64,000 nucleotides of DNA, taken from the NCBI RefSeq assembly GCF_030253575.1, contig NC_080561.1:6771001-6835000 (forward strand), read 5' to 3'. This stretch comes from Rhododendron vialii. Taxonomy: Eukaryota; Streptophyta; Magnoliopsida; Ericales; Ericaceae. The translations under genes and the position numbers were made by a program. The notes beneath the pieces are model-generated. The model was given only the letters and a program-made list of their open reading frames with translations, did no database searches and was not told where the DNA came from. Within the stretch, counting starts at the first letter, position 1. Each line of letters starts with the position of its first letter. Positions 23,341-56,056 of this stretch are shown piece by piece.

Positions 23341-24299
23341 TTCTTGTAATAACTACCTTATTTTAATAAAATGCGGACTTCCCTTTCCTGATCGAATTTC
23401 GATAATTCGAGCCGATCAATGTGTTTAGAACGTGATTTGAAAGGTATTTGCGAGAAATCAGCAAAAAAAAGGATCGGAAAGATCTTCATCCGAGCAGTTT
23501 TTGTTTGTTTTTTTATCTAACGGTTCATGGCTTGATTATTTGTGGCTTCATTGCGTGTAGGTTGTACATAGTTTGATGTGTATATGGTCTGTTCTTATTT
23601 TTCCGCTCTAACCTGTTATTTATCCATATCCGACACTACGATTACACATGCAAATGAAAGAATAATTGTGGTACTTCTGTACTTTTCTCCAATAATTGTG
23701 TTTGAATTTTGTCATTTATGTAGATGGCTGCCGATCAGTATGATGCAAATGCAATAGAAGTTGCAGTAATCGGAGCCGTGACATTAGTGATAGCTACCTG
23801 TGTTGCAATCATTGAAACTTTAAGAACTGGGAGCCTTATCAGAGGCGTGACTTCAGTGATAATTATTGGGGTTGTAGTACTTGGAGCCGCACTCATAGCG
23901 GAAGATGAAAGGAAGAATCAAATAGAAAAGGAAAATACCGGACAACAGGAATCTAAACTTGATTTTAGCTCGAAGGAATCAAAGGAAGAAGTGCAAGCAA
24001 AAGAAGATGAAAAGAACGAGAAAATAGACGAGGAATTAACCAGACAACAGAAAGCTAAACTCGACGTTAGTTTGAAGGAATCGAAGGAAGAAGTAAGGAG
24101 GCGGAGTAGTTGTAGTAGTGAAGAATTCCAGAGCTTGGAAGCTAAATATGATGCCAAGTACGAAAACCTACTTCAAAAATACTTGGATAGGTGCCATGGA
24201 TGGGAGGAAGGGAGAAGCCAACTGATGAAGGAGCTTGGTGCTGCTAGGGCATCATCTGAAATCTACAGAGAGCTACTTCATGGTTCAGATGATTTTTAA
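22822..24299 (+). CDS. Four-TM/coiled-coil family protein, complete copy B (two exons)
   Basis: Exon 1 is 22822-23082 (87 codons; donor AAG|GTACGTAC). Exon 2 is 23724-24299 (acceptor TTTATGTAG|ATGGCTGCC). Phase 0, 278 aa predicted. Hydrophobic segments lie at about 31-53, 62-84, 98-118 and 124-146. The remaining 130 residues are Lys/Glu-rich. They contain a tandem duplication of about 34 residues, each ending KESKEEV, then SEEFQSLEAKY, a YENLLQKY heptad-like stretch, HGWEEGRSQLM and the terminal GSDDF. This is the long-tail type. The 0.64-kb intron holds a hAT remnant near 23123 and a (TA)(GA) microsatellite (23278-23337). The first 87 residues are nearly identical to the broken copy at 17759. 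No known family is recognised; coding potential is supported by in-frame indels among copies. Confidence 0.77.
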
Positions 24300-26712
24300 C
24301 CTTAACAATTAATTTGCATGCTTAATTAGTTGCTTACTAAAGTACCACTTTTTTGCATCTTCTTGTTCTGCTCAATTTAAATAAAGGACACAGTTTTTTT
24401 ATTTTAGCATGGTAGTAGTAATTAATAGTTCAGTTTTTCTTATTGAGTTTTGTTTCAGTTGCCAGTGGCTCTTCTTGACTGATGAATACTTTTGGATTGG
24501 CATTTTAGTAGAAGTTTTTATTTATTTCCATGATAATTGCGTTGCTTGGTTTGTCCGGTCTGTGGAAGTCTCAACTTTCTGATGTTTTGGCTTTCGCCCC
24601 CCAGATAAATAAAATGTCCTCTCTTTCTGTAAAAAAAAACAGAGAGAGAGAGATGCTATCATGGAAACATGTTTCTTGCTTTGATCTCCCTAATGGCACG
24701 TTTGTTTACGAGTAATATAGTCTCAAAAGGAATGTAAATTTCTTCGTCATGTAAACAGAATAAAAAGACTCTATTTCAATAATACATAATGCTTATTCGC
24801 CAGGTTATTTCATGTAATAATGAGAAAATGTGGCATGGTTTTTATTTGGAAAGTTGGATTCAGCAATCTTCGATTCTTCATATTTTGAAGGCAACTCATA
24901 TCAGTTAATTTGTTCGCCTGCGCTCCTAAAGCTTTCTAATAATAACAAGAAAATACAATCTCTAGGGGGGGGGGGGGGGGGGGGGGAAAGAGTGAAAAGA
25001 CATGAATCCTGGCAAATTTCTAGGGAAAATATAGGGAGATAAAAGCAGGGGAATTCAGAGGAACAAAGAAATCGATCATAATATATAAAATCATAAATGG
25101 ATAGAAAGGAGAGAAGACATTTAGATCGTATTGTTCTTGCAGGATTCTGGTAAAGTAGATAACAAGGAAATCAGTCAAGCGAAAACTGAACTTGATGTTA
25201 GCTTGTAGGAAGAAGAGAAAAAAATACATGGAAGGGGGGAAGAATTGAAGACATTGGAAGCTACACAAGAGTCAAAGATAGGGTCCATAAACGAACCGAA
25301 CCGAACAAGCAAAGCTGGTTAAGCTTGGCTTTAAAACTCATCTGAGTTTTATTAAAGTGTTTGAAATTGGTTTGTTACTAGCAGAACGATGCTCTGAACA
25401 AGCTTCACGAAACTAGCCCGATCAGCTTTGCTTGTTCAAGATTAGTTTGCAAACTTAACGAACCCAAAACATGCATCCAACTTTGGCTTACTTAATTCTT
25501 GGATGAACCGATCTTAAGCGAACTTCTGGTAGCTCAAGCAATTTGGTCCATTTAACATTCATTCGCGGAGGAAGGCATGTACTGCAAAGAATGAAATTCC
25601 AGAAACCGGAAGCAAAATATATAGAGAGAGGGGAATAGTACCAAGATACGGGCCAATTATTGGGTACTTTTGAAGTATCATGTGGTGTTAAGACACGTGG
25701 TACTCTCCGCAAATAAGAAACCACCACACAATGTGTTCACTCCTTATCTTTCAATCATCTAACAAAAGGAGTAATTATATAATAGTTTGGGAGTACCATC
25801 ACATGATACTAACCACTTTACGACCACACGTTTCTATAGGATTCATACACTTAGTGGTAGACCTTACAAGAAGAGAGTGTGGTTGTAAAGTGGTCCAGAG
25901 TATCACGTGGCGATACTCCCGGACTATTATATAATTTTACCAACAAAAGTGCATAATAATATTCCTATCACATTATTTATCGCTACGTAAATAGTTGGGA
26001 GTACCACGTAGCCAACTCTACCCGATACTCCGGAAGCGTTGAATAAATTACTCCAAGATACATGATCCAGCTGCTTGACAGATTTCATGTGGAAAGCTCG
26101 AGAAAACCAATCACTGGGTGAAAAAACATCGAGAGAAAACTAGAGGATCAGCTCAAATGGGAGGAAGAGAGAAGCCAACTGGTTGCCAAATTATCTGCTG
26201 CCACTGACCTGTTGACGACCCATTTCGTGTCTTTTTTTCAATCCCCATTTTGCCCACTAATCTATTTCGTATCTTTGTTACTAAAAATATTCTAAATATC
26301 GACCACTATCTCCTAAATATAGCAAGGCAGAGAACTTCTGTTCATTGGAGCCAAAAGATCTCCCATTTCCAAAATTGGACTTGGGAAGATTGGAGGCTGG
26401 CTCCATTCCCATTTACTGGCTTTAGCAATGCCCAACATGATTTAAGTTGGTGGGTTTGCGCACACGAGGGAGAGCGCTTATCAGTAGTTAACGGAAGAAA
26501 AGTGCAAAACATTTAAACAATTTAAGAATCTCAAACACCACGGCCAATGGAAAGATAACACACAGTTCAACTTCATAAGAAAACAGATGGTACAGTTTTG
26601 TTATCTCCCAGACGCCACATATATCTACTAACATAAACGAAATGTGTATGAAGCAGCTTTCAAAAAGATGGAAATCCTCTGATACTAACATAATGCCCAT
26701 CCCTTTTTGTTT
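24300..26712. other. Intergenic: unit 3-prime flank, poly-G, decayed fragments, SKP1 3-prime region
   Basis: Contains a 22-G run (24965-24986). A degraded exon-2-like trace lies near 25170-25265 (AACTTGATGTTAGCTTG then GAAGACATTGGAAGCTA), and another near 26155-26190 (TGGGAGGAAGAGAGAAGCCAACTG). A degenerate repeat sits at 25280-25470 (GAACCGAACAAGCAAAGC...GCTTTGCTTGTTC). The last 200 bp are conserved with 51530-51742 and probably form the SKP1 3-prime UTR. Paralogous to 49443-51742. Confidence 0.55.
24965..24986. repeat. Homopolymer of 22 G
   Basis: An uninterrupted G run in AT-rich surroundings. The paralogous flank near 49880 lacks it. Confidence 0.9.
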
Positions 26713-29700
26713 TCACTCAAATGCCCAAGCATTCTCCCTGCGAACCTCTTCTTCCTCCGGAGTGAAATAGCTCATGTTGTTAAGGATTTCCTCTGGAGTA
26801 ATTCCCTCGATCATGTCCGCCACAGTCTGGCATGTCAAATCTTGCAGGCTCTTGATGTTAAGATATTCTGCCGCCTGTAAAGAAAGATAAAACAAACTAA
26901 AGGATACGAGAAAATAAGTAGTCTTACATACACAGACAGACATGCATGTAAATGCAACAAGAGGCAGCTTAACATTATATGGCTGAACTCTCATCCACAG
27001 AAAATCATCAAATAAAGCCCATTCACGCAGTTAGATGGGAGTCGTGGGACTCATACACATTCACTGAAGCTCAGGAGAAACTGGCATAACATTGCGCAAG
27101 AGACGTAGCTTCAGAAGTCAGCACAATGGCCATTGACCCATAGTCAAAAAGTAAACCAATGACTTGGGCTGGGCACTGGACACTCCCCAAATGGGTACTA
27201 CCAAGCGACTCAATAACTTCAACATGAGGAACTAAAGAACTCAATCACTTGCTGCAAATTTCAGGCACTCACTGTCAACACTCCCTATTTCATTTCATAA
27301 GACCATGTTACGTCCCAAGACTCCCAATTGATAGCCTAATCTCCAAAGCTATCAATAATTATAGAAACACAAATTTCATCAATGAATTTGTGTGTTAGTG
27401 CATAAAAAAGAAGCATCATTTAAATCCATGTGTACTGTCAACCAAAGGTGTACTGACACCAGCAACACATGCTCCATAAAAGTATGTGCAAATGCTCTGT
27501 ATCAACATCCCAACGCAAGTTGTTCATAGAGGACCAAAATTCATTTCCTAACTCTTTCCAGAAACGCTTTTACGCAATACAAAGAACAGCTATACAGGGT
27601 AATAGTTCCTAAAGATGTCCAAGTATCGCCTATACGGTATCTCATTTCCCCCATGCCGGCATATAGTAAACCCAAACCCCATATCTATTTATCTAATATC
27701 CACAAACAAGAATAGAACCCCATAAAACTAATGCTATCAGTTCAATAATAAGAATGTGCACAACGACGTAGCAAATCATGAATACAAACCTCGTCAACTG
27801 TTTCTAGACCCAAAAGAGAACATCATAGTCACAAAATAATTGAACATTGCTTCTGATGATTGTAGACAATACTTGATCCCATAAAAAAACTCAGAGTTAA
27901 AACAGAAGTAGAGAATGCATCAAAACAAAAAATCAGTAACAAAAACTAATGGAGGTATCCATACCACTAGCAAAAGAAAACACAGAACGCATTAGATAAT
28001 CAAGCACTTAAGATCTAGAAAATCATCAGATACAGTTCTTAAGCCTTCCCAGAAACCAGAACTACATCCAAATGATTTTGCTCAGAAGACAGAAGCAGTT
28101 TAGTATACAATTTAAAAGACAACCTGATTTAGTCCAAATTATCCCAGCGTGATCGATAATCAGTAAAACCTTATGATACGGCATGTGTATCTTACGATCC
28201 GTATCTTCTCCTTCCAAAAACAAAACATATCCCACCCCGTATAATTTTTTAATTGAAATTCCACGTATGCAATGACGTATCCAACAATCACATATCCTGA
28301 TTCGATAGGTATCCTACGGTTACTCCTTGTAAAAAAAAGTCAGACCATAATTTAAGAAGCGGAATCCAAAATGCATTCTAAATCATTTGATCTAAATTAT
28401 AATGATGGTGAATGCAAACAATTTAAAGAATAACAAACCTCAATCCATTATTAGGGCTTGAATAGAAGAAAGAACATATAACAATCATGTCTTGCATGAA
28501 TACACTAAGGGCTCTTCTTCTCTTTCCTTGACCAAGAAATCAAAAGCCTCAATGCAAATACACCCCACTAGGGAGACTTGGAATCTTTCATCCTAAAAAT
28601 AGGTTTTTTTTTTTTTTTTAATCCCCTAAACAATGCACATTTTTCCTACTTCGTCCTTGAACAACTAATTTGACGATTTCATCCCTTCAACTTCTAGATC
28701 GCTACCTATGTCTTGAATAGATAACGGTTGTGATCATTTTGGACGGAAAACGTTTCACGTGCCTATCACGTGCGATCCTATCCCTAATAACGGGCAAAAA
28801 TGCCGTTGTACCTGTAAACCAAAAAACCCTCCTCCCTCGCCGCAAAAAAACCCCCTCAATTCTCAATCTTAAAACTTGACTCAACCCAAGAAAATAAAAA
28901 TTAAAACCTAAGAAGAAACCAAGATCAACAAACCAAAACCTTGCAAATCAGAACCATAAAACTCAGAAATTTGAATGGAACGAAACCTATAGTCAATCAA
29001 AATTGTCTTCTTCGATTTATGACGTTCGGCTACCAGAACCGAACAAAGTGAATGCTCGGACCTCAGGTCAGGCGCCGAACATAGGGCTTTAGTTCGGAAA
29101 CTCGCGAGTCACGACGAACATAAGGACTTTGTTAGGAAACTTTGCGACGAATTGAAGTGTTCAGGTGTAGAGCTCCAAACGCGAAGCACTTGTTCGTTAG
29201 TTGATATGCAAACAAAAGAAGATTGTTCGACCGCGAGCTCCGAAAACAAAGCCGAATCAAACCTTGGCCAATGCTGTGAATTCAGTTCGCTACAAACCTT
29301 GGCCAATGCTGTCGTAATGTCAAACAAAATTCAAAGATTGAGACTTCTGTAGATTGAACGAGACGGTGTACACTGGGGACGGGTCAATTGGGGTTATATA
29401 ATCGATTAATCCGGGGCAACGAAGTCAGGGTCAATTATATGGTCATGAAGTGGTTGGGATGAGGATGTGAAATGCTCCAAATATGGAGTGGGTTGCTGGA
29501 TATGGAGGGGGGCTGCCGGAATTGGGGATAGGATCGCACGTAATAGTTACGTGAAACGTTTTCCGTCCAGAATGTTCCCAGCCGTTATCGATTGAACGAC
29601 ATAGTTAGCGATCAGGAAGTTGAAGGGATAAAATCATTAAATTGGTAGTTTAGGGATGAAGTAGATAAATGTGCATAGTTTAAAAGATTAAAAAAAAAAT

Positions 29701-31402
29701 ATAAGTCTATAATAAAACAAACTGACTAACAAAACCCATTATATTATACTCGACTCTCTAAACAAAACATTTCTACTTTAAAAAAAACACGGATTTTAAG
29801 ACATAGGTCATTCTTCTCACGTATATCAACTAAGCAGAAATAACTTGTCTAAAAGACCATAAGCTATAGACGAAATTTTTATGGGAAACTCACCGCAGAG
29901 TACACAAATAGAAATACACAATAAATACATGCATCAACATAACAAATCCATCACAAAAACTAGAAAGAAGGCGTAATCTCCGCACCACAAACCGAAACAA
30001 AACACACATTCAAATGAGGATAGTTTTGTTCACCCACCTTTAAAAAGGGTAAACATTACTCTCTCTGAGATTAGTGGAAATTGTATAGGGCCCACAGAAT
30101 CAATACACTTTTTTAAAATAATGGGGGTTAGTTTGTGATAGGACCTACACAATTTTCACCAATGAGAGGGTAATGTTTAAAGAGGGTGAACAAAATCATT
30201 CACCAATCAAACTAACAATGCATCGAAAAACCAACTACTCGGCTAATTTTAATCTAGGCGTTGGAACTCCGCCTAGTGCCAAATAGTCGACCATCTGCAA
30301 TAAACCATCAAAAACCTGAAGAAATCGTTAAAAAAAAAAAAAGGCACGGAGATCAAACCAAGATGAGATCGAAGAGCACGCCCTGGTCGACGTTGACGAA
30401 CTCCTTGTCCCACTTCTTGAGAGCCTCGTCGTCGGCCGCGTCCTTGCCGAGGTCGTTGGCATTGCTGGAGCCAGAGGCCTCGACGTGCTTCCTGCAGTAC
30501 TCGATGACCTTGGCGAGGATCTTGCTGTTGACGTTGGGGAGGGGGATGGTGTTGTCGGCGCAGTTGTCCTTGATCATGTGCTTGATGGTTTGGGATTTCA
30601 GGCCCATGGTCTCCTCAACCTCGAAGGTCTCACCGTCGGAGGATTTCAGGACGATTTTCTTTGGAGTTGACATGGTTTTTGGTTCAGTGTTTGATAACCC
30701 TAACCCTTCGTTCATACCATTTGGGTTGTCATTGATGTGGCACCCCATCAGATGCCCCGCAATCTTGGCAGGACCTACGCGCGGTCGAATTAGATTCCTG
30801 GAGGGTGGTACAAAGCCTTCCCCACCGCCACCGGCCACGCTAGGCCAGTTCCACACAAACCTACCTGCATTACGAAGGGCAGATGAAACACCCACCCCAG
30901 AAGGAATGACAAGAATCACCGTATAGCCGCGTTGACCTAGTATGTGTAGAGCCGGAGCAAAGTCAACATCCCCAGAGATCAGCATGATGGAAGATGGTGG
31001 AGGGTTGTCAAGGGCAAAAAGAAACATATCAATCAATATGGCCTTGTCAGCGGCATCTTTTCTCCCATTTGGTACATCTATGAGTTTGACACCAGTTCTT
31101 TGGCATCCCTCCCTCAGGTTCCTAGAGAAGACATTAAAATCCCCATAGGCAGAGAACAAGGTAACAGGTCCCTTAATAATCGGATGGACCCGTACGGCCA
31201 TCCTGATGTTGCCAGCCACGTCTTCTGGGCGTACATCACGAGGGACACGACAGTTCTCAATGTCCCAAAGAATAGCCACAGGACCTTGCGAGGAGTTTCC
31301 GCTCTGTTGTGAAGGTGGTGTGTTTGAATTTTCACCATGTGCCCCGCTTTGTTCTGAGGTTCCAGAAGACAACATCAATTCTGATGCACTTGTACTAGCC
31401 AT
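26713..31402 (-). CDS. NYN domain-SKP1 fusion protein (two exons)
   Basis: Exon 1 is 31402-30359 (348 codons; donor CTCATCTTG|GTTTGA). Exon 2 is 26874-26713 (acceptor CTTTACAG|GCGGCA). The join [11 protein letters not shown] is phase 0 at the usual plant SKP1 intron position. The predicted protein is 401 aa. Residues about 40-190 form a NYN (PIN-like, LabA/MARF1-type) ribonuclease domain. It has [10 protein letters not shown] (D47), KDAADK (116-120) and ISGDVDF (D145, D147), so the expected acidic residues are present. Residues 244-401 are SKP1: [15 protein letters not shown], the BTB/POZ fold, [21 protein letters not shown], then the F-box-binding C-terminus ending WAFE. SKP1 normally starts at M244, so this is SKP1 with a 243-residue N-terminal extension in one open frame. 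Exon 2 is 4 codons shorter than usual: in-frame losses in the [15 protein letters not shown] region ([14 protein letters not shown] here), which could alter F-box binding. Either the fusion is translated, or SKP1 starts internally at 30673. Transcript data would decide. Confidence 0.82.
28600..29701. mobile_element. Mutator-like element in the SKP1 intron, copy 1
   Basis: Long terminal inverted repeats of about 180 bp (28600-28785 and 29522-29701) share GGACGGAAAACGTTTCACGTG and CACGTGCGATCCTATCC with their inverses. The left flank TCCTAAAAA (28591-28599) is one half of the 9-bp duplication still intact in the paralog at 53702-54986; the right half is lost here. The interior is non-repetitive, with no transposase. 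Part of the right interior is deleted relative to the paralog. Confidence 0.9.
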
Positions 31403-32213
31403 CACTCACTTGTCGAAAACTCAAATATTCCTGCTGCTGGACAAGACAAAGAAGTATATATAAGCAACTATACAACAAGGTGCTCCCATCACGAATAAGA
31501 AAGATACTAAGGTACAAAGTTCGGGGGCCTTGACAACCCGGCCGCCTTATACTTGGATACAGCCTTTCGGTACCAATTGGCCTACAAGACACACGTTCAT
31601 CTATTTACCAAGATCACTTCCATGACGCAAACCTAGCTTGCAAACAACCGATCAAAAAAAAACAAAGGGACTTCCACATCTGCGTAGTTACTACTCTAGC
31701 AGTAAACTCAAAGATAATTCCCAAATGCACACACGACATAAGCCACGTACTAGAATTTCAGTTTGAATTATTCTTATTTTCCGTTTCCGCTAAACTAAAT
31801 GGGCTAAAATCCATGTTTTCCCTCACATCTATTAACTAAAATACTACCATTTAACGAAAATAATTTGACGATTGTCATTAAGGTGTAGTCTAATAATATA
31901 GCGGAAAGGCACCCTCCAAAGAAACTGTAAAGATTCACAACAAAAAAGAACAAATGGAAAAGGGAACCAAAAAGAAGCCATACCTTTGAGAACCAGAACT
32001 GAATAGACAAAAACAAGAACTAATCCAAAAAGAGAGAAGAAAGTTAATAAAGATACCTGATTTTTTTTCGTCTAAATTTTCTGATATGCAGCTTCCGATG
32101 GAGATTTTACTCTTCTTTTCTCTGCAAGAAAACTAGATCAACTGAAATCGAGTACCCAGGGAAGAGAGATCACAATTTTCCAAATCTTATATATGTACAG
32201 TCACACAAGCATA

Positions 32214-32218
<5 letters not shown>
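31403..32218 (-). promoter_or_regulatory. Probable leader, leader intron and promoter of NYN-SKP1
   Basis: Upstream of the ATG (minus strand) a pyrimidine-rich acceptor CTTTGTCTTGTCCAGCAG lies at about 31432-31450. A donor AAATCAG|GTATCT at 32057-32056 sits upstream of it, so a non-coding first exon near 32057-32160 with a roughly 600-bp leader intron is plausible. In the paralogous gene the homology stops at 56163, so that copy has lost or replaced this upstream part. Confidence 0.45.
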
Positions 32219-32253
<35 letters not shown>

Positions 32254-32362
32254 GAAGAAGCAGAGCGTGAAGTTTCTTTGGGAGTACGTACGCTAGAGAG
32301 AGAGAGAGAGAGAGAGAGTTGAAGAAGCAGAGCGTGAAGTTTCTTTGGGAGTACGTACGCTA
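32219..32362. repeat. Tandem duplication with (GA)n, about 70-bp period
   Basis: Two copies of a (GA)n tract followed by GTTGAAGAAGCAGAGCGTGA and TTTGGGAGTACGTACGCTAG. The GA lengths differ (about 17 and 13 units). Confidence 0.9.
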
Positions 32363-33453
32363 GCTGAGATTTTAGGAACAACGCTGCTACACAGTTTTTT
32401 TTTTTTTTCGGCTAAGCTGCTACACACAATTTTTTGCACACAAATAGTGCACAGATTACAGTGTGGGGCCTACTAAAGATTTCACACAAATGATCCGATC
32501 CGTTAATTAAATATGAAATATTTTTTGAAAGACTGTCTCAAAAAATCAACTCAATCTGATAGATATATGTTTTCGATCCAATCATCTAACTTTTCATGAT
32601 GATTTTCAGATAATGAAAAGTTAGATAATTTGATCGAGTACTTATGAGTATCGGATTAAGCTGATATTTGCAAAAACACTTGAAAATTTATTTTATATTT
32701 AATGAAAAGTTCGAATTGTTTAAATAAGACCCGTAGTGTGCCTCATACCATAATCTGTACACGATTTGTGTGCACAAATCCGTGTGTAGACTTACTTTTT
32801 TATGGAATTGTCTCTCTCTTAGTTTTACAACCAAACAGTTTCAAATTTAATTAACTTTTCTTCCCCCTCATTTTTCCCTATTTTCTCAACCCCAATTCAA
32901 CTACTCACTTCATTTTTTTTTCGAATGTGAGAGTTAAATTAAAAGAAAAGTACAACAATCAATAACCAGGAATATCTGTAAAATAAATTGTGGAAGAGAT
33001 CAATTTTAATTAATTAATTAATTACCCTACTTATTGGAAAAAAAGAACAGAAAAGGTGTACTTAAAAAGAAAGTGGAATGGGCCCTTACTTTACTTTACT
33101 CTCCCTCTCCTCTCCTCTCCTCTCTCCATACTAGAGACCAGAGGGGGACCACCACACGCATTATAACTCATTAGAGCGTTCACATCAGTCTGTTGATTTT
33201 GGACCAAATTAACCTTCAAATGCTACTTTTCTATTTTAACTAGTTATTTTTTATAATTACAAAAAATCAAGCTCTTTACTCTTGTTCTCTTCTTAATTAA
33301 AATAATATAATATAATAATAGGGGTTGGAGCTTTTTCTTTTCTTTATTAAAGTAATGTAAGGCTTCTCCTAAACATGGGAGGCAGTGCAAATAATTGGGG
33401 GACCTTTTGATAAAAAAAAATAATAATAGAAGGTGGGGCTAAGAATAACAGTA
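32363..33453. other. Intergenic: AT-rich, no gene seen
   Basis: No convincing ORF or gene signal. TACACAG/GTGCACAGATTACAGT-type sequence near 32390-32460 and the inverse near 32750-32795 (CATAATCTGTACACGATTTGTGTGCACA) suggest the inverted ends of an old MITE. Confidence 0.4.
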
Positions 33454-45274: not shown

Positions 45275-45448
45275 TCACTCAAACGCCCAAGCATTCTCCC
45301 TGCTAACCTCCTCTTCTTCCTCCAGAGTGAAATCGTTCTTGATGTTAAACGTCTTGCGGATTTCCTCTGGACTCTTTCCCTTGATCATGTCCGCCACCGT
45401 CTGACATGTAAAATTTAGCAAGCTCTTGATGTTCAGAAAATTTGCCGC
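45275..45448 (-). pseudogene. Orphan SKP1 exon 2 (copy 3)
   Basis: A complete exon of 57 codons plus stop with acceptor TTTACAG|GCGGCAAAT. It encodes [20 protein letters not shown], then [20 protein letters not shown] and ends WAFE. It keeps the canonical length that the 26713 copy has lost. No SKP1 exon 1 follows: homology to the SKP1 intron stops after CATTCACTGA at about 45597 and joins the four-TM promoter region. The frame is intact but it cannot make a SKP1 alone. Confidence 0.85.
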
Positions 45449-48083: not shown

Positions 48084-49442
48084 ATGGCGAAGGAGCAGGT
48101 AGATAGAGCAGAGCCTCCTCCTCCTTCTGTAGGGAATGATAGTAACAAATCTCAAGGATTCGCCGAAAACCTTGGGTGTCTAGCTTTCTGGATCGAACGA
48201 GGCGTTGCAGCCTTTCTAGTGTTACGGTTGTACTGGTTTTCCCCAAACGTCTGGGGCAGGATCTTGTTTACAGCCGTCAGCAATCTTATTCTCTCCAACT
48301 CTCTCTACCTCATCTCACTCTTCTCCTCACTTCTACCGGTACGTGCATGCATCAAAACCCTATATACATAAGCGTACGAGTGCAATATTCATGCCAATCC
48401 AGTATATTCTTATGCATGTCAAGCTATAAACAGGGCCAGCTCTGAGTTTTCCATGGCCCGACGTGAACTTTTTCAAATGAGGCAATTTTATACAACTCCC
48501 AAATTAGAATTTTTCAAATTTAAAGAAAATACTACAAGTATTCAAAATTAACCATAATATAAAATTTCAATCCTCTGCCATTTGTTAGATTGTGCTTGAT
48601 AAATGTGTTACATTCTTGTATATGTAAAATTAAACACATGCACATTTGTAGCTCTTTTCTTCCATCTAGCTCTATTTATGGCTTGATTTGTGGCTTGATT
48701 GCGTATGGTTTGTACATAGTTTGATGTGTATATGGTCTGTTCTTATTTTTCAGCTCTAACCCGTGATTTATCCATATCCGACACTACGATTACACGTGCA
48801 AATGAAAGAATAATTGCGGTACTTCTGTACTTTTCTCCATTAATTTATGTTTGAATGTTATCATTTATGTAGATGGCTGCCAATCGGTATGATGGAAATG
48901 CAAATGAAGTTGCAGTAATCGGAGCCGTGACATTAGTGATAGCTACCTGTGTTGCAATCATTGAAACTTTAACATCTGGGAGCCTTATCGTAGGCGTGAT
49001 TTCAGTGATACGTATTGGGGTTGCAGTAATCGGAGCCGCACTACAAGACAAATTGAAGAAACAAATAGACGAGGAAAATACCGGACAAAATGAAGTTAAA
49101 CTTGATTTTCGCTCGAAGGAATCAAAGGAAGAAGTGCAAGCAAAAGATGAAATGAACAATGAAATAGATGAGGAATTAACCGAACAACAGAAAGCTAAAC
49201 TCGACGCTAGTTTGAAGGATTCGAAGGAAGAAGTAAGGAGTAGTAGTAGTTGCTGTCCTAGTGAAGAATTTCAGAGCTTGGAAGCTAAATACCATGCCAA
49301 GTATGAAAACCTGCTTCAAAAATACTTTGATAAGTGCCATGGATGGGAGGAAGAGAGAAACCAACTGATGAAGGAGCTTGGTTCTGCTAGGGCATCATCT
49401 GAAATCTACAGAGAGCTTCTACATGGTTCAGATGATTTTTAA
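48084..49442 (+). CDS. Four-TM/coiled-coil family protein, complete copy C (two exons)
   Basis: Exon 1 is 48084-48338 (85 codons; donor CCG|GTACGT). Exon 2 is 48873-49442 (acceptor TTTATGTAG|ATGGCTGCC). Phase 0, 274 aa. Architecture is as in the 22822 copy: hydrophobic segments at about 31-50, 58-82, 96-116 and 122-143, then the long charged tail with two KESKEEV-type repeats, SEEFQSLEAKY and terminal GSDDF. Exon 1 differs strongly from the 22822 copy (FAENLGCLAFWIERGVAAFL against IAEHLVFLAFLMERCTAAMW) and resembles the 62815 copy. Exon 2 is close to the 22822 copy, so the two exons have different histories. The intron is 0.53 kb and contains the end of a hAT-like remnant (CAGGGCCAGCTCTGAG near 48431). 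The function is unknown. Confidence 0.77.
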
Positions 49443-51742
49443 CCTTAATAATTAATTGCATGCTTGATTAGTTGCTTACTACCACTTTTTTGCATCTTCG
49501 TGATTAGTTAAGTTTTTCTTATTGAGTTTTGTTTCAGTTACTAGTGCCTCTCCTTGACTGCTGAATACTTTTGGATTGGCATTTTAGTAGAAGTTTTTAT
49601 TTATTTCCTTGATAATTGCGTTGCTTGGTTTGTCCGGTCTGTAGACGTCTCAACTTTCTGATGGCTTTCACCTCCCAGATGAATAAAATCTTCTCTTTCT
49701 GTTAAAAGAAGAAGAAGAAGAAGAAGAAGATGCTTTCAAACATGTTTCTCGCTGAAGATGTGGCATGGTTTACATTTGGAAAGTTGGATTCAGCGATCTT
49801 CAAGTCTTCATATTTTAAAGGGCATCAGTTTGTTTGTCTGCTCCTAAAGCTTTCCTAATAATCACAAGAAAACACAGCCTCTGTTGCCGGTGTCATCATG
49901 AGAATAGAATAATTCTACAGTGTTGTGGAAAGAAAAAGAGCGAACAATATACGAATCCTCGCAAATTGCTACTGAAAATATAGGGAGATAAAAGCAGGGG
50001 AAGGCAGAGGCACAAATAAATTAGTAGATAAAAGCAGGGGAATTCAGTCAAGCGAAAGCTGAACTTGATCTAGGAGCAGTGCGTCTCCTCTTTTTCTCTC
50101 TTGAATAGAGAGTTTTTTCTTCACCTAGGTTTTCTTCTTTCCTCTGTCGCCGCCCCCCTCTATACCCCACCTTTCCATCTCAAATCTCTTCCTCCATTAC
50201 CTCCTCTCCCCCCTTCTTTTCTGATTGACGTTGTGGGGGTGGGGTTGCCGGCCTCTCGCCTCACCCCCACCCGGTTCCATACTAGCCTGTCACCCCTTTT
50301 CAACCTCCCGTCGACCTATCTCTAGACTCCACCACCAGATTGCGGCCCCTCACCACCGTCCATCCCCTCCACCCATCGTCCATCCTCTCCACCTTTTCCA
50401 TATACCGCCCTTCGGCCCTTTGCTCACCACTATCACCTCCATCACTTACCTTCCTCTGCCATCTGATTCGTGGCCACTGGAGTAGATTTGACGAAGGGTT
50501 GAACTCGGGTGGTTTTGGCCCCCTCCAACGCAATAAAGCTCTTAAACCGCAGGCGGCCGGCGATGGAGCTTGGTTCTCATTCTGAAGAAGCGGCTGGTTT
50601 GTTCTCGGTTCAACCCGATCCAACACGGTGAGAAGAATCGGTGGTTGTTTTGGGTGGACCATTTGAGCCCAGATTAGCTGTTTTTTGTTCTTTTTTTGGT
50701 TTTGTTTGTTGGTTAGTTCTCTTGATTACATATGTGCTAGATTGTGTTACGGTTTGAGCTGGGTATCCGTAGGGATGCTCTGCTGCTAATCGTTGATAGG
50801 ATTCATAGTCCCGCCCCAAAGGTGTCGGGTCTGCTTTGGCAGGTGTGTCTGCGAGCCGAGAGCCCCTTGAAAGCCTTACCATGCCGCGCTCATTTCAATT
50901 GTTAGCAGCTTTGGTTTCATTCCTGTCTTTTGATGTAATCGTTGCCGGATGGCGTTATGAAGACATTGGAAGCTAATTAGCTAAACAAGAGTCATAGATA
51001 GGGCCTATAAACGAACCGAACAAGCAAAGCTGGTTAAGCTTGGCTTTAAAACTCATCTGAGTTTTATATTAGTGTTTGAAATTGGTTTGTTATTAGCCGA
51101 ACCGACATTGGACAAGCTTCACGAAACTAGCTCTATCAGCTTGGTTTTTCCCACGGTAAAAATTCATCAAGACAAGTAATAAGTTGTTCAAGATTAGTTT
51201 GCAAACTGAACGAACCCAAAACATGTATCCAACTTTGGCTTACTCCTTGGATGAACCGATCCTGAACTTACTTCTGGTAGCTCTAGCAATTTGGTCTATT
51301 TAACATCCATACGCGGAGGAAGGCATATACTACCAAAAATGAAATTGCAGGAACCGGAAGCAAAATATCGAGGAATAGTACTCCTGAACTTGGGAAAGAC
51401 GCCTTTTCTCAGAAGATTGGAGGCTTGCCTCATTCCCCATTTACTGGCTTTAGCAATGCCCAACATAGTTTAACTTGGTTTTGGGCTCGCGCAAACGAGG
51501 GAGAGCACTTATCAGTAATTAACTGAAGAAAAGTGCAAAACATCTAAACAATTTAAGAATCTTAACTCCACGGCCAATGGAAAGATAACACACGGTTCAA
51601 CTTAATACGAAAACAGATGGTTCAGATTTTTTATATCCCAGACGCCACATATATCTACTAAAATAAACGAAATGCGTACGAAGCAGCTTTCAGAAAGATG
51701 GAAATCCTCTGATACTAACATATTGCCCATCCCTTTTTGTTT
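49443..51742. other. Intergenic: unit flank, retro-insertion, SKP1 3-prime region
   Basis: Contains (GAA)n near 49705-49730. At about 50070-50945 a C/T-rich then G-rich segment interrupts sequence that is continuous in block 1 (AACTTGAT... / ...GAAGACATTGGAAGCTA), so it is an insertion, possibly retroelement-derived. No ORF with a known domain. The last 200 bp match the SKP1 3-prime region of block 1. Confidence 0.55.
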
Positions 51743-54700
51743 TCACTCAAATGCCCAAGGATTCGCCCTGCGAACCTCCTCCTCTTCCTCCGGAGTGAAA
51801 TGTCCCTTGATGTTAAAGGTCTTCTGGATTTCCTCTGGAGTCTTTCCCTTGATCATGTCCGCCACACTCTGGCATGTCAAATCTACCAGGCTCTTGATGT
51901 TAAGATAATGTGCCGCCTGTAAAGAAAGATTAAACAAGCCAAAGGATACGAGAAAATAAGTAGTCTTACATACACAGACAGACATGCATGTAAATGCAAC
52001 AAGAGGCAGCTTAACATTATATGGCTGAACTCTCATCCACAGAAAATCATCAAATAAAGCCCATTCATGCAGCTAGATGGGAGTCGTGGGACTCATACAC
52101 ATTCACTGAAGCTCAGGAGAAACTGGTATAATATTGCGCAAGTGACGTAGCTTCAGAAGTCAGCACAATGGCCATTGATCCATTATCAAAAAGTAAACCG
52201 ATGACTTGGGCTGGGCACTGGACACTCCCCAAATGGGTACTGCCAAGCGACTCAATAACTTCAACATGAGGAACTAAAGAACTCAATCACTTGCTGCAAA
52301 TTTCAGGCACTCAATGTCAACACTCCCTATTTCATTTCATAAGACCATGTTACGTCCCAAGACTCCCAATTGATAGCCTAATCTCCAAAGCTATCAATAA
52401 TTATAGAAACACAAATTTCATCAATGCATTTGTGTGTTAGTGCATAAAAAAGGAGCACCATTTAAATCCATGTGCACTGTCAACCAAGCAAACCAGAAAC
52501 AGACTACTAATTTGGGATGCCTAGAAAAACAAATGTGCACTGACACCAGCAACACATGCTCCATAAAAGTATGTGCAAATGTTCTGCATCAACATCCCGA
52601 CGCAAGTTGTTCATAGAGGACCAAAATTTATTTCCTAACTCTTTCCAGAAACGCTTTTACGCAATACACAGAACGGCTATACAGGGTAATAGTTCCTAAA
52701 GATGTCCAAGTATCGCCTATACGGTATCTCATTTCCCCCATGCCGGCATATGGTAAAACCCAAACCCCATATCTATTATCTAATATCCACAAAACAAGAA
52801 TAGAACCCCATAAAACTAATGCTATCAGTTCAATAATAAGAATGTGCACAACGACGTACCAAATCATGAATACAAACCTCTTCAACTGTTTCTAGACCCA
52901 AAAGAGAACATCATAGTCACAAAACATTGTGGTTCTTTCAATTGAACATTGCTTCTGATGATTGTGGACAATACTTGATCCCATAAAAAAACTCAGAGTT
53001 AAAACAGAAGTAGAGAATGCATCAAAACAAAAAATCAGTAACAAAAACTAATGGAGGTATCCATACTACAAGCAAAAGAAAACACAGAGCGCATTAGATA
53101 ATCAAGCGCTTAAGATCTAGAAAATCATCAGATACAGTTCTTAAGCCTTCCCAGAAACCAGAACTACATCCAAATGATTTTGCTCTGTAGACAGAAGCAG
53201 TTTAGTGTACAATTTAAAAGACTACCTGATTTAGTCCAACTTATCCCAGCGTGATCGATAATCAGTAAAACCTTATGATACGGCATGTGTATCTTACGAT
53301 CCGTATCGTCTCCTTCCAAAAACTAAACATATCCCACCCCGTATCATTTTTTAATTGAAATTCCACGTATGCAATGACGTAGCCAACAATCGCATATCCT
53401 GATTCGATAGGTATCCTACTGTTACTCCTTGTAAAAAAAATTCAGACCATAATTTAAGAATCGGAACTCAAAATGCGTTCTAAATCATTTGATCTAAATT
53501 ATAATTATGGCAAATGCAAACAATTTAAAGAATAACAAACCTCAATCAATTATTAGGGCTTGAATAGAAGAATGAACATATAACAATCATGTCTTGCATG
53601 AATACACTGAGGGCTCTTCTTCTCTTTCCTTGACCAAGAAATCAAAAGCCTCAATGCAAATACAACCCACTAGGGAGACTCAGAATCTTTCATCCTAAAA
53701 AGAGGTTTTTTTTTTTTTTACTTTTATCCCCTAAACAATGCACATTTTTCCTATTTCGTCCTTGAGCAATTAATTTGAAGATTTCATCCCCTCAACTTTT
53801 AGATCGCTACCTATGTCACCGAATAGATAACGGCTGTGATCATTTTGGATGGAAAACTTTTCACATGCCTATCACGTGCAATCCTATCCCTGATAACAGG
53901 GGCAAAAATGCCTTTGTACCTATAAACCAAGAAACCCTCCTCCCTCACCGCAAAAAAAACCTCTCAATTCTCAATCTTAAAACTTGATTCAACCCAAGAA
54001 AATAAAAATTAAAACCTAAGAAGAAACCAAGATCAACAAACCAAAACCTTGCAAATCAGAACCATTAAACTCAGAAATTTGAATAGAACGAAACCTATAG
54101 TCAAACAAAATTGTCTTCTTCGATTTATGACGTTCGGCTACCAGAACCGAACAAAGTGAGAATGCTCGGACCTCAGGTCAGGCGCCGAACATAGGGCTTT
54201 TGTTCGGAAACTCACGAGTCACGACGAACATAAGGACTTTGTTAGGAAACTTTGCGACGAATTGAAGTGTTCGGGTGTAGAGCTCCACGTGAAGCACTTG
54301 TTCGTTAGTTGATACAAACAAAAGAAGATTGTTCGACTGCGAGCTCCGAAAACAAAGCCGAATCAAAGAGTAACTGTGAACCCAGTTCGCTACAACCCTT
54401 GGCCAATGCTGTCGTAATGTCAAACAAAATTCAAAGATTGAGACTTCTGTAGATTGAACGGGACGGTGTACACTGGGGACGGGTCAACGAAGTCAGGGTC
54501 AATTATATGGTCATGAAGCGGTTGGGATGAGGATGTGAAATGCTCCAAACATGGAGTGGGTTGCTGGATATGGAGGGGGGCTGCCGGAATTGGGGGTGGT
54601 GACGGGAAATAACCAATTGGGTTTATCTTTAAAACTCTGTCCAAATTTTGCCGAAACCGTTGCTCCCCTTTGATTTCTGTTCCAGATTCAAACTCTAAGT

Positions 54701-56056
54701 TTGATCGCACCAGAGGAGAGATAGAGAGGAGGTGTGAAAAATGCCGTACTAGGGGTGGCCCTATATTTCATGAGACCTAGAATGACATTTTTGCCCCTGT
54801 TATTTGGGATAGGATCGGACGTAATAGGTATGTGAAACGTTTTCCGTCCAAAATGTTCCCAGCCATTATCGATTGGACGACATAGGGAGCGATCAGAAAG
54901 TTAAGGGATGAAATCATCAAATTGGTAGTTCAAAGACGAAGTAGAAAAATGAGCATAATTTAGAAGATAAAAAGAAAAAAAAATTCTCCTAAAAAACTAT
55001 AATAAAACAAACAAACGAACAAAACCCATTATACCATACTTAGTTCTCCAAACAAAATAATTCTACTTCAAAAAAAAACATGAATTTCAAGATATAGGTC
55101 ATTCTTCTCACGTATATTAACTAAGCAGAAATAATTTGTCTAAAAGACCCTAAGCTATAGACGAAATTTTTATGGAAAACTCACCCGCAGAGTACACAAA
55201 TAGAAATACACAATAAACATCAACATAACAAATCCATCACAAAAACTAGAAAGAAGGCATATCAAGCGAGGATAGTTTTGTTCACCCACCTTTAATGGGG
55301 ATGAAAATTACTCTATCTGTGATTAGTGGAAATTATATAAGGTCCATGGAATCAATACACTTTTTAGTAATAATTGGGTTAGTTTGTGGTGAAACCTACA
55401 CAATTTCCACCAATGAGAGGGTAATATTTAAAGAGGATGAACAAAATTATTCACCAATCAAACTAACAAAACATCAAAAAACCAACTACTCGGCTAATTT
55501 CAATATAGGCATTGGAACCCCGCCTAGTGCCAACTAATCAACCGTTTGCAATAAACCATCGAAAACCTGAAGAAATCGTTAAAAAAAAAAAAAAAAAAAA
55601 GAGGCACGGAGATCAAACCAAGACGAGATCGAAGAGCACTCCCTGGTCGACGTCGACGAACTTCGCGTCCCACTCCTTGAGAGCCTTGTCGTCGGCCGTG
55701 TCTTTGTCGAGGTGGTTGGCATTGCCGGAGCCGGAGGCCTTGACGTGCTTCCTGCAGTACTCGATGACCTTGGCGAGGATCTTGCTGTTGACGTTGGGGA
55801 GGGAGATGGTGTTGTCGGCACAGTCGTCCTTGATCATGTGCTTGATGGTTTGGGATTCTAGGGCCACGGTCTCCTCAACCTCAAAGGTCTCACCATCGGA
55901 GGATTTCAGGACAATTTTCTTTGGAGTTGATATGGTTTTTGGTTCAGTGTTTGAAAACCCTAACCCTTCGCTCATGTTTGAATTTTCCCCATGTGCCCCA
56001 CTTTGTTCTGAGGTTCCGGAAGACAACATCAACGTTGATGCACTTGTACTAGCCAT
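51743..56056 (-). CDS. N-terminally extended SKP1-like protein (two exons)
   Basis: Exon 1 is 56056-55619 (146 codons; donor CTCGTCTTG|GTTTGA). Exon 2 is 51916-51743 (57 codons plus stop; acceptor TTTACAG|GCGGCAC). Predicted 203 aa. SKP1 is the adaptor linking CUL1 to F-box proteins in SCF ubiquitin ligases. The SKP1 part (from [14 protein letters not shown] to WAFE) is full length, with the canonical [20 protein letters not shown] region. The first 41 residues match the fusion at 31402 ([23 protein letters not shown], then [11 protein letters not shown]), but 202 residues (606 nt) of NYN domain are cleanly absent. The usual SKP1 ATG is ATA here (55933-55931), so translation must start upstream. 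It ends at WAFE without the C-terminal tail typical of SSK1 proteins. The intron of 3.7 kb holds a Mutator-like element. Confidence 0.88.
53702..54986. mobile_element. Mutator-like element in the SKP1 intron, copy 2
   Basis: Terminal inverted repeats of about 200 bp (53702-53917 and 54782-54986) extend inward to AGGGGCAAAAATG and its inverse. The 9-bp target duplication TCCTAAAAA is perfect (53693-53701 and 54987-54995). The interior of about 860 bp has a 96-codon minus-strand ORF (54420-54710) with Pro-rich sequence, possibly a captured host exon (Pack-MULE type), not identified. Confidence 0.93.

What the first reader, a model, noticed from the sequence alone, without database searches (positions are those of the whole stretch)
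26713..31402. NYN ribonuclease domain fused in frame to SKP1
One 348-codon exon holds a NYN domain with all visible acidic motifs (LWDIENC, KDAADK, SGDVDF) and then a complete SKP1 N-terminal half. It splices at the standard SKP1 intron to a SKP1 C-terminus. A natural joining of an endoribonuclease-type fold with the SCF adaptor would bring a nuclease to a ubiquitin ligase, or place the nuclease under F-box targeting. I know of no described protein of this architecture.
Basis: partly seen in the sequence, partly recalled or inferred. Interest (0 to 1): 0.9.

Follow-up and report, generated by a model that had tools for sequence, protein, structure and literature searches.

The report
RNA-cutting domain fused to SKP1
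In rhododendrons, the front half of a gene for an RNA-cutting enzyme was copied onto the start of a gene for a protein-disposal adaptor, giving one open gene for a two-part protein that two distantly related species share; what the protein does is untested.

Summary
One open frame (31402-30359, minus) encodes a NYN domain then SKP1, and splices to a SKP1 3' exon (26874-26713). The window is from Rhododendron vialii. A database holds the identical 401-aa protein as one gene, and a 90%-identical orthologue in R. molle; a published clock implies a split about 47 Mya.

The origin is visible at base level. A DNE1-like gene (NYN + LOTUS; DNE1 is a DCP1-associated endoribonuclease) lies 3.86 Mb away. 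Its TATA region, 5'UTR exon, part of the 5'UTR intron and about 235 codons were copied as DNA to within 33 bp of a SKP1 start codon. The linker is former SKP1 5'UTR; a 1-nt deletion bypassed its in-frame stop. A second copy (56056-55619) kept leader and linker, lost NYN in frame, and changed SKP1's Met to Ile.

Four catalytic Asp and the POZ half persist; the F-box-binding half is degraded and the NYN part evolves fast. I infer one chimeric protein, possibly a CUL1-docking SKP1 with a built-in partner-binding arm. A relaxed chimera without important function is not excluded. No transcript, protein or activity evidence was available. My paper searches listed no description of such a fusion.

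The parts
32186..32372 (-). Promoter region copied from the DNE1-like gene; TATA-like CATATATAAG begins at 32195 and is identical in the parent
   Evidence: blastn to L009, alignment, coordinates
32057..32165 (-). Predicted 5'UTR exon copied from the DNE1-like gene, ending at donor CAG|GTATCT (start estimated as TATA + 30)
31437..32056 (-). Predicted 5'UTR intron, shortened relative to the parent (about 2.3 kb of parental intron absent); acceptor at 31437, 31434 or 31431
30707..31402 (-). Codons 1-232: DNE1-like leader and NYN domain (Pfam NYN at residues 42-180); D47, D88, D119, D145 align with Asp of the MARF1 NYN structures
   Evidence: list of four catalytic MARF1 Asp from PMC10226599
30674..30706 (-). 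Linker [11 protein letters not shown]: former SKP1 5'UTR, read through after a 1-nt deletion that bypasses an in-frame TAG
30359..30673 (-). SKP1 first coding exon from the ancestral Met (M244); POZ half
26875..30358 (-). SKP1 intron at the position shared with the unfused paralogues L032-L036 (L037 is intronless); holds an inverted-repeat element (about 28599-29710)
26713..26874 (-). SKP1 second coding exon with stop; RKTFNIKND replaced by LNNMSY and one Glu lost
55619..56056 (-). Second copy, exon 1: DNE1-like leader (27 codons) + linker + SKP1 exon 1; NYN deleted in frame; SKP1 Met changed to Ile (ATA at 55933)
51743..51916 (-). Nearest downstream SKP1 exon 2 of the second copy, with stop
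45278..45448 (-). SKP1 exon 2 copy used by the database protein P0125 (R. vialii SKP1-like 1A isoform X2), stop codon not included
   Evidence: 100% identity

Best explanation
This is a real chimeric gene in Rhododendron that encodes one polypeptide, a DNE1-type NYN domain joined to a SKP1-like domain. SHOWN: the DNE1-like gene's promoter region, 5'UTR exon, part of the 5'UTR intron and 5' coding half were duplicated as DNA and joined 33 bp upstream of a SKP1 start codon; a 1-nt deletion put the two in one frame; the arrangement is shared by R. vialii and R. molle; the SKP1 part lacks the upstream region of its unfused neighbour. INFERRED, likely: transcription starts at the DNE1-derived promoter and translation at M1, giving one protein. 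INFERRED, tentative: the POZ half still docks to CUL1 while the degraded F-box-binding half has lost or narrowed F-box binding, so that the NYN part acts as a built-in partner-binding arm. The complex would then ubiquitinate, or be sequestered by, partners of the NYN part such as mRNA-decay factors. Whether the NYN part still cuts RNA is open.
For: One ORF and domains. Identical database protein and R. molle orthologue, the only 2 of the 120 listed hits (694 found) that carry both domains. Genome: of 22 Skp1_POZ matches one, and of 9 NYN matches one, lies in this 350-codon frame. Parent with NYN and two OST-HTH stretches. Parent match over promoter, 5'UTR exon and CDS, ending at 30706. Unfused SKP1 homology beginning at 30706. 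1-nt deletion and bypassed TAG. No AUG in the predicted 5'UTR, with G at -3 and +4 of M1, and 19 AUGs (7 in frame) from M1 up to M244, which makes leaky scanning to M244 unlikely. The six coding indels counted in the family are multiples of 3, against 2 of 6 in an intron stretch: (biased towards open frames, see full report). The second copy needs an upstream start because SKP1 Met is Ile. Catalytic Asp intact. POZ 94.7 and 102.1 bits but dimerisation domain 45.7 and 38.1 bits, against 108.4 and 108.1 in P0124.
Against: No transcript, peptide or activity evidence. In the junction-spanning search, no listed hit (120 of 1248) apart from the gene model P0125 covers more than 64% of the query, so no read-assembled ORF across the junction was seen. 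At 123 family-invariant NYN-region columns the fusions have 6 (R. vialii) and 7 (R. molle) changes, against 0 in the parent and a mean of 0.62, at most 4, in 113 family members. The fused lineage gained 18 replacements against 6 in the parent (p 0.023), and omega = 1 on that branch is not excluded (P 0.08-0.18). Fused SKP1 vs SKP1-A omega is 0.50 (0.27-1.03); fused exon 2 vs the 51.9 kb exon 2 is 1.16 (0.32-6.00). R. vialii changes VALESQ to MGLKSQ in the POZ part. A copy in the same array lost the NYN part. No fusion appeared for R. simsii or R. williamsianum in the listed hits, although absence from gene models is weak evidence. CUL1 docking was not tested.
Confidence: 0.58

Rival explanations
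1. A relaxed chimera: the fused gene is open but evolves nearly neutrally and has no important function; it survives because woody plants accumulate mutations slowly.
For: 6 and 7 changes at family-invariant columns against 0 in the parent. Fused NYN vs parent dS 0.119, dN 0.054, ratio 0.46 (0.25-0.80) averaged over both branches; most replacements lie on the fused branch and omega = 1 there is not excluded. SKP1 C-terminal half degraded, and repeated in R. molle.
Against: If all 29 replacements were neutral, the chance of no stop and no frameshift is about 0.016 (rough, and biased because broken copies would not be found by a protein search; the no-stop part alone is 0.375). Fewer hits at invariant columns than random (11 of 29 against 53%), but only p 0.07. 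Four catalytic Asp intact in both species.
Confidence: 0.28
2. The SKP1 part is the working product and the NYN part is a passenger: the fusion mainly gave a SKP1 duplicate a new promoter and N-terminal extension.
For: Copy 2 keeps leader, linker and SKP1, lost NYN in frame, and both SKP1 domains are strong in the database model P0125 (99.3 and 95.4 bits); copy 2 SKP1 exon 1 vs SKP1-A omega 0.24 (0.12-0.56).
Against: In the NYN-bearing copy it is the SKP1 C-terminal half that is degraded, whereas the NYN score stays near that of intact DNE1-like proteins (92.7 and 94.0 in the fusions; 95.1, 95.0 and 95.2 in P0006, P0005 and the parent). Copy 2 does not have the DNE1-derived promoter.
Confidence: 0.18
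3. Two genes merged on paper: SKP1 is made separately from M244 from an internal promoter or by splicing.
For: The ancestral SKP1 Met is kept in both NYN-bearing proteins.
Against: The upstream region of the unfused SKP1 is not found beyond 33 bp; 19 AUGs precede M244; in copy 2 the SKP1 Met is Ile, so that copy cannot start there; the annotations of the two species each model one gene.
Confidence: 0.07
4. Assembly artefact joining two loci.
For: None seen.
Against: HiFi/Hi-C assembly (PMC10338486, passages), the same fusion in R. molle, and a derived second copy about 25 kb away with the same leader and linker.
Confidence: 0.01

Closest known systems
DNE1 (DCP1-associated NYN endoribonuclease 1, Arabidopsis AT2G15560), a MARF1 homologue
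   Same: NYN domain with four catalytic Asp; the Rhododendron parent has the DNE1 layout, one N-terminal NYN and two OST-HTH/LOTUS stretches (DNE1 layout from PMC10226599)
   Different: The fusion has no OST-HTH domain and carries SKP1 in its place. Orthology of the parent to DNE1 is inferred from layout; no tree was built and the Arabidopsis sequence was not compared.
Plant SKP1 / ASK proteins (ASK1 type)
   Same: POZ domain, intron position shared with most unfused paralogues examined, C-terminal WAFE
   Different: 232-residue DNE1-like extension and 11-residue linker at the N-terminus; RKTFNIKND region replaced and shortened; Asn to Glu in the AANYL motif
CUL3 BTB adaptors (recalled comparison, not tested)
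   Same: Would work alike if the POZ part docks to a cullin and a second domain of the same chain binds partners
   Different: SKP1 family and presumably CUL1; no comparison with these adaptors was run
Chimeric genes formed by segmental duplication (general class, recalled)
   Same: Copied 5' half with promoter placed before another gene
   Different: This domain pair was not seen outside Rhododendron in the 120 listed hits

Membership tests
NYN endoribonuclease (DNE1/MARF1 type) | NYN domain over the Pfam cut-off | tested here: met
   92.7 bits in R. vialii, 94.0 in R. molle, cut-off 24.2
NYN endoribonuclease (DNE1/MARF1 type) | Four catalytic Asp (mouse MARF1 D178, D215, D246, D272) | tested here: met
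   D47, D88, D119, D145 align with Asp in MARF1 5yaa and 6fdl; same residues in R. molle. The residue list is from PMC10226599; pairing by order and spacing is mine
NYN endoribonuclease (DNE1/MARF1 type) | C-terminal LOTUS/OST-HTH domains | tested here: not met
   No OST-HTH in P0001 or P0002; present in P0005, P0006 and the R. vialii parent
NYN endoribonuclease (DNE1/MARF1 type) | RNA cleavage activity and DCP1 binding | not testable with these tools
   No assay; the paper on DCP1 binding (PMC8825452) is not held
SKP1 adaptor | Skp1_POZ domain | tested here: met
   94.7 and 102.1 bits, cut-off 21.9
SKP1 adaptor | Intact C-terminal (F-box-binding, Pfam dimerisation) domain | tested here: inconclusive
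   Over the cut-off but much reduced: 45.7 bits (R. vialii) and 38.1 bits with 25 of 48 positions in the best stretch (R. molle), against 108.1 in P0124
SKP1 adaptor | Binds CUL1 and F-box proteins | not testable with these tools
Retrogene | Loss of introns and promoter of the parent | tested here: not met
   Parental promoter region, 5'UTR exon and part of the 5'UTR intron are present

The most novel reading that the evidence does not exclude
A plant lineage has turned a SKP1 into a single-chain CUL1 adaptor: the POZ half docks to CUL1, F-box binding has been given up, and the attached DNE1-type NYN domain selects the partner, so that an mRNA-decay complex is linked directly to a ubiquitin ligase without an F-box protein.
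Probability: 0.2. Interest if true: 0.85.

Novelty: new variant of a known kind. Interest (0 to 1): 0.62.

Why it matters
A nuclease domain and the core adaptor of SCF ubiquitin ligases in one chain would connect mRNA decay with protein ubiquitination directly. DNE1 is reported to cleave mRNAs of the F-box proteins EBF1/2 (PMC10888710, passages), so a DNE1-SKP1 chimera is a natural place to look for such a link. Even without a new function, the locus is an unusually clear record of chimeric gene birth: parent, unfused recipient, junction, frame-making deletion and a secondary derivative all lie on one chromosome.

Tried and rejected
Retroposition: rejected, because the parental promoter region, 5'UTR exon and part of the 5'UTR intron are present. 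Separate SKP1 gene with its own promoter: not supported. Assembly error: rejected by the R. molle orthologue and the second copy. Wider occurrence of the pair: of the 120 listed hits (694 found), 2 carry both domains; proteins outside 0.55 to 1.75 times the query's 349 aa (about 192-611 aa) were not candidates. The next two hits (P0003, P0004) have two NYN stretches each and no SKP1 (read from their sequences). Junction-spanning fragment: no further fusion among the listed 120 of 1248; proteins over about 300 aa, the fusions included, were outside it. Exon-versus-intron divergence as a sign of positive selection: not used, because divergence along the copies is patchy and gene conversion is a simpler reading. 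A mixed alignment of LOTUS-bearing and SKP1 proteins mixed unrelated parts and was dropped; alignment A3 was made for a structure prediction that could not run and served only for reading residues. A search for a paper on the SKP1 Asn at the F-box contact found none. Papers: searches for NYN domain with SKP1 (with 'plant': 0 papers; 2 papers, both on Regnase/MCPIP ribonucleases by title), Rhododendron with SKP1 (13 papers, 10 listed) and chimeric SKP1-like genes (3 papers) showed no such fusion in titles and abstract starts; I did not open those papers, and the library is open-access only.
Full report
OBSERVATION. The minus-strand frame 31405-30353 is open for 350 codons, with M1 at 31402. Pfam finds NYN at residues 42-180 and Skp1_POZ at 248-307 of exon 1, both far above the cut-offs. 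Exon 1 (31402-30359) joined to exon 2 (26874-26713) reads to a stop without interruption. The product equals P0001, an R. vialii protein of 401 aa annotated as one gene, LOC131327269. The window lies in a 532.6 Mb assembly at C5:6771001-6835000; the size fits R. vialii haplotype A, 532.7 Mb (PMC10338486, passages).

A SECOND SPECIES. P0002 from R. molle (426 aa, Rhmol05G0065400) is 90% identical over the whole query and has the same domains and a linker of the same 11 residues' length. Among the 120 listed hits of 694, these two are the only ones with both NYN and SKP1 domains. R. vialii is in subgenus Azaleastrum (PMC10338486, start of abstract). A pangenome paper dates the split of Tsutsusi and Azaleastrum from the remaining Rhododendron species studied to 47.4 (39.9-56.1) Mya (PMC13326988, passages). 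That R. molle is on the other side of that split (subgenus Pentanthera) is recalled. Seven replacements relative to the parent are shared by both fusions, so the fusion most likely arose once, before that split. No fusion was listed for R. simsii or R. williamsianum, whose SKP1 proteins were listed; I could not search their genomes.

ORIGIN AT BASE LEVEL. The genome search gave 9 NYN matches; the best, above the fusion itself, is a 526-aa single-frame coding region on the same chromosome at C5:10.66 Mb, 3.86 Mb away. It has one NYN and two OST-HTH stretches and is 90% identical to P0006. This is the layout of Arabidopsis DNE1, one NYN and two LOTUS domains (PMC10226599, passages). Parent and window match in pieces from 32372 to 31504 (promoter, 5'UTR exon, intron parts; 73-89%) and from 31481 to 30706 (acceptor, leader and coding, 90.6%), with about 2.3 kb of parental intron absent. 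The TATA-like motif, donor and acceptor are conserved. Homology to the parent stops at 30706. Homology to the unfused SKP1 gene next door (SKP1-A in L032, exon 1 at C5:6839.4-6839.7 kb) starts at 30706. Two unfused SKP1 genes (L032, L033) have an in-frame TAG in this 5'UTR stretch; the fused copies lack one base downstream of it, which moves the upstream frame onto SKP1 and passes the TAG by. The linker [11 protein letters not shown] is therefore former 5'UTR. This is a DNA-level duplication, not a retrogene.

SECOND COPY. At 56056-55619 lies the same leader, linker and SKP1 exon 1, with the NYN domain deleted in frame. The parent reads ATGAAC at both deletion edges, so a short direct repeat may have guided the deletion (inference). 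The SKP1 start codon is ATA, so this copy must start upstream, at M1 or M28. It matches P0125, annotated as SKP1-like 1A isoform X2, which uses the exon 2 at 45448-45278. Both copies share the 1-nt deletion, so the in-frame state came before they separated.

IS THE FRAME SELECTED? Six coding indels were counted in the family: 15 nt and 6 nt in the R. vialii fusion, 9 nt and 3 nt in its exon 2, the NYN deletion in copy 2, and a 63-nt repeat inferred from the R. molle protein. All six are multiples of 3; in an intron stretch compared between copies 1 and 2, 2 of 6 are. One third each by chance would give 0.0014, but this overstates the case: the R. molle indel was seen only in a protein, the copies were found through open frames, and the 1-nt deletion in the linker is left out because that stretch was then untranslated. 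Against it: at 123 family-invariant columns the fusions have 6 and 7 changes, the parent 0, and 113 family members (of 116 ids P0005-P0120, those longer than 450 aa) a mean of 0.62 and at most 4. The R. vialii fused lineage has 18 replacements and the parent about 6 (p 0.023); 11 of 29 fused-lineage replacements hit invariant columns where 53% would be expected (p 0.07). Pairwise omega is 0.46 (0.25-0.80) for the NYN part against the parent, 0.50 (0.27-1.03) for the SKP1 part against SKP1-A, and 1.16 (0.32-6.00) for fused exon 2 against the 51.9 kb exon 2. Omega = 1 on the fused NYN branch is not excluded (P 0.08-0.18). If all replacements are charged to neutrality, the chance of no stop is 0.375, of no frameshift 0.043, jointly 0.016. 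These numbers are rough: synonymous changes could not be polarised. I read them as fast evolution with the frame maintained; neutral evolution of the NYN part is not excluded.

DOMAIN STATE. Residues D47, D88, D119 and D145 align with Asp of MARF1, with the spacing of the four catalytic ones, and are kept in R. molle. The POZ half scores 94.7 (R. vialii) and 102.1 (R. molle) bits against 108.4 in unfused P0124; the C-terminal domain scores 45.7 and 38.1 against 108.1. In both species AANYL has become AAEYL and RKTFNIKND has been replaced by a shorter LNNM(S/N)Y; R. molle carries a 21-residue repeat here. That this half contacts the F-box is established knowledge, recalled. R. vialii also has MGLKSQ for VALESQ in the POZ part, which counts against an untouched POZ surface.

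EXPRESSION LOGIC. The predicted 5'UTR has no AUG and M1 has G at -3 and +4; 19 AUGs (7 in frame) lie from M1 up to M244. The upstream sequence of SKP1-A is not found beyond 33 bp. So a transcript from the DNE1-derived promoter should give the full protein. No transcript evidence was available: in the junction-spanning search no listed hit, the gene model P0125 aside, covers more than 64% of the query.

EXPLANATION AND RIVALS. I hold the chimeric gene as shown, one protein as likely, and the single-chain CUL1 adaptor as a tentative mechanism. The main rival is a relaxed chimera without important function. Copy 2 supports a third view, in which SKP1 with a new leader is the working part.

NOVELTY. 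The parts are known, and the pair was not seen outside Rhododendron in the listed hits. Paper searches showed no description in their listings (open-access library only). I file it as a new variant of a known kind: a chimeric gene with a new domain pair.

Noticed in passing
23724-24299 (+), 48873-49442 (+) and L032 about 625-1569: A small open reading frame (191 and 189 aa) lies beside SKP1 copies in what looks like a tandemly repeated two-gene unit; L032 has matching DNA beside the unfused SKP1.
   Followed up: partly
45448-45278 and 62118-61948 (-): Further SKP1 exon 2 copies without an adjacent exon 1; the database isoform P0125 joins copy 2 exon 1 to the one at 45 kb, past a nearer exon 2 at 51.9 kb.
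   Followed up: partly
26385-30715 vs 51412-55975: Divergence between the two copies is patchy: often 1-5% per 100 bp in the middle of the intron and about 4-12% in exon windows, up to 19% elsewhere, as gene conversion would leave.
   Followed up: partly
28599-28810 and 29516-29710: Inverted repeat with arms of about 190 bp in the SKP1 intron, also present in copy 2; looks like an inserted mobile element.
   Followed up: no
P0002 (R. molle), residues about 375-415: A 21-residue stretch of the SKP1 C-terminal half is repeated in tandem.
   Followed up: partly
P0003 (Brassica cretica) and P0004 (Olea europaea): Proteins with two NYN stretches in tandem and no OST-HTH in their listed Pfam domains.
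   Followed up: no
upstream of 56212 (-): Copy 2 shows no match to the DNE1-like promoter; its upstream DNA has a TATA-like stretch and a possible donor of unknown origin (by eye).
   Followed up: no
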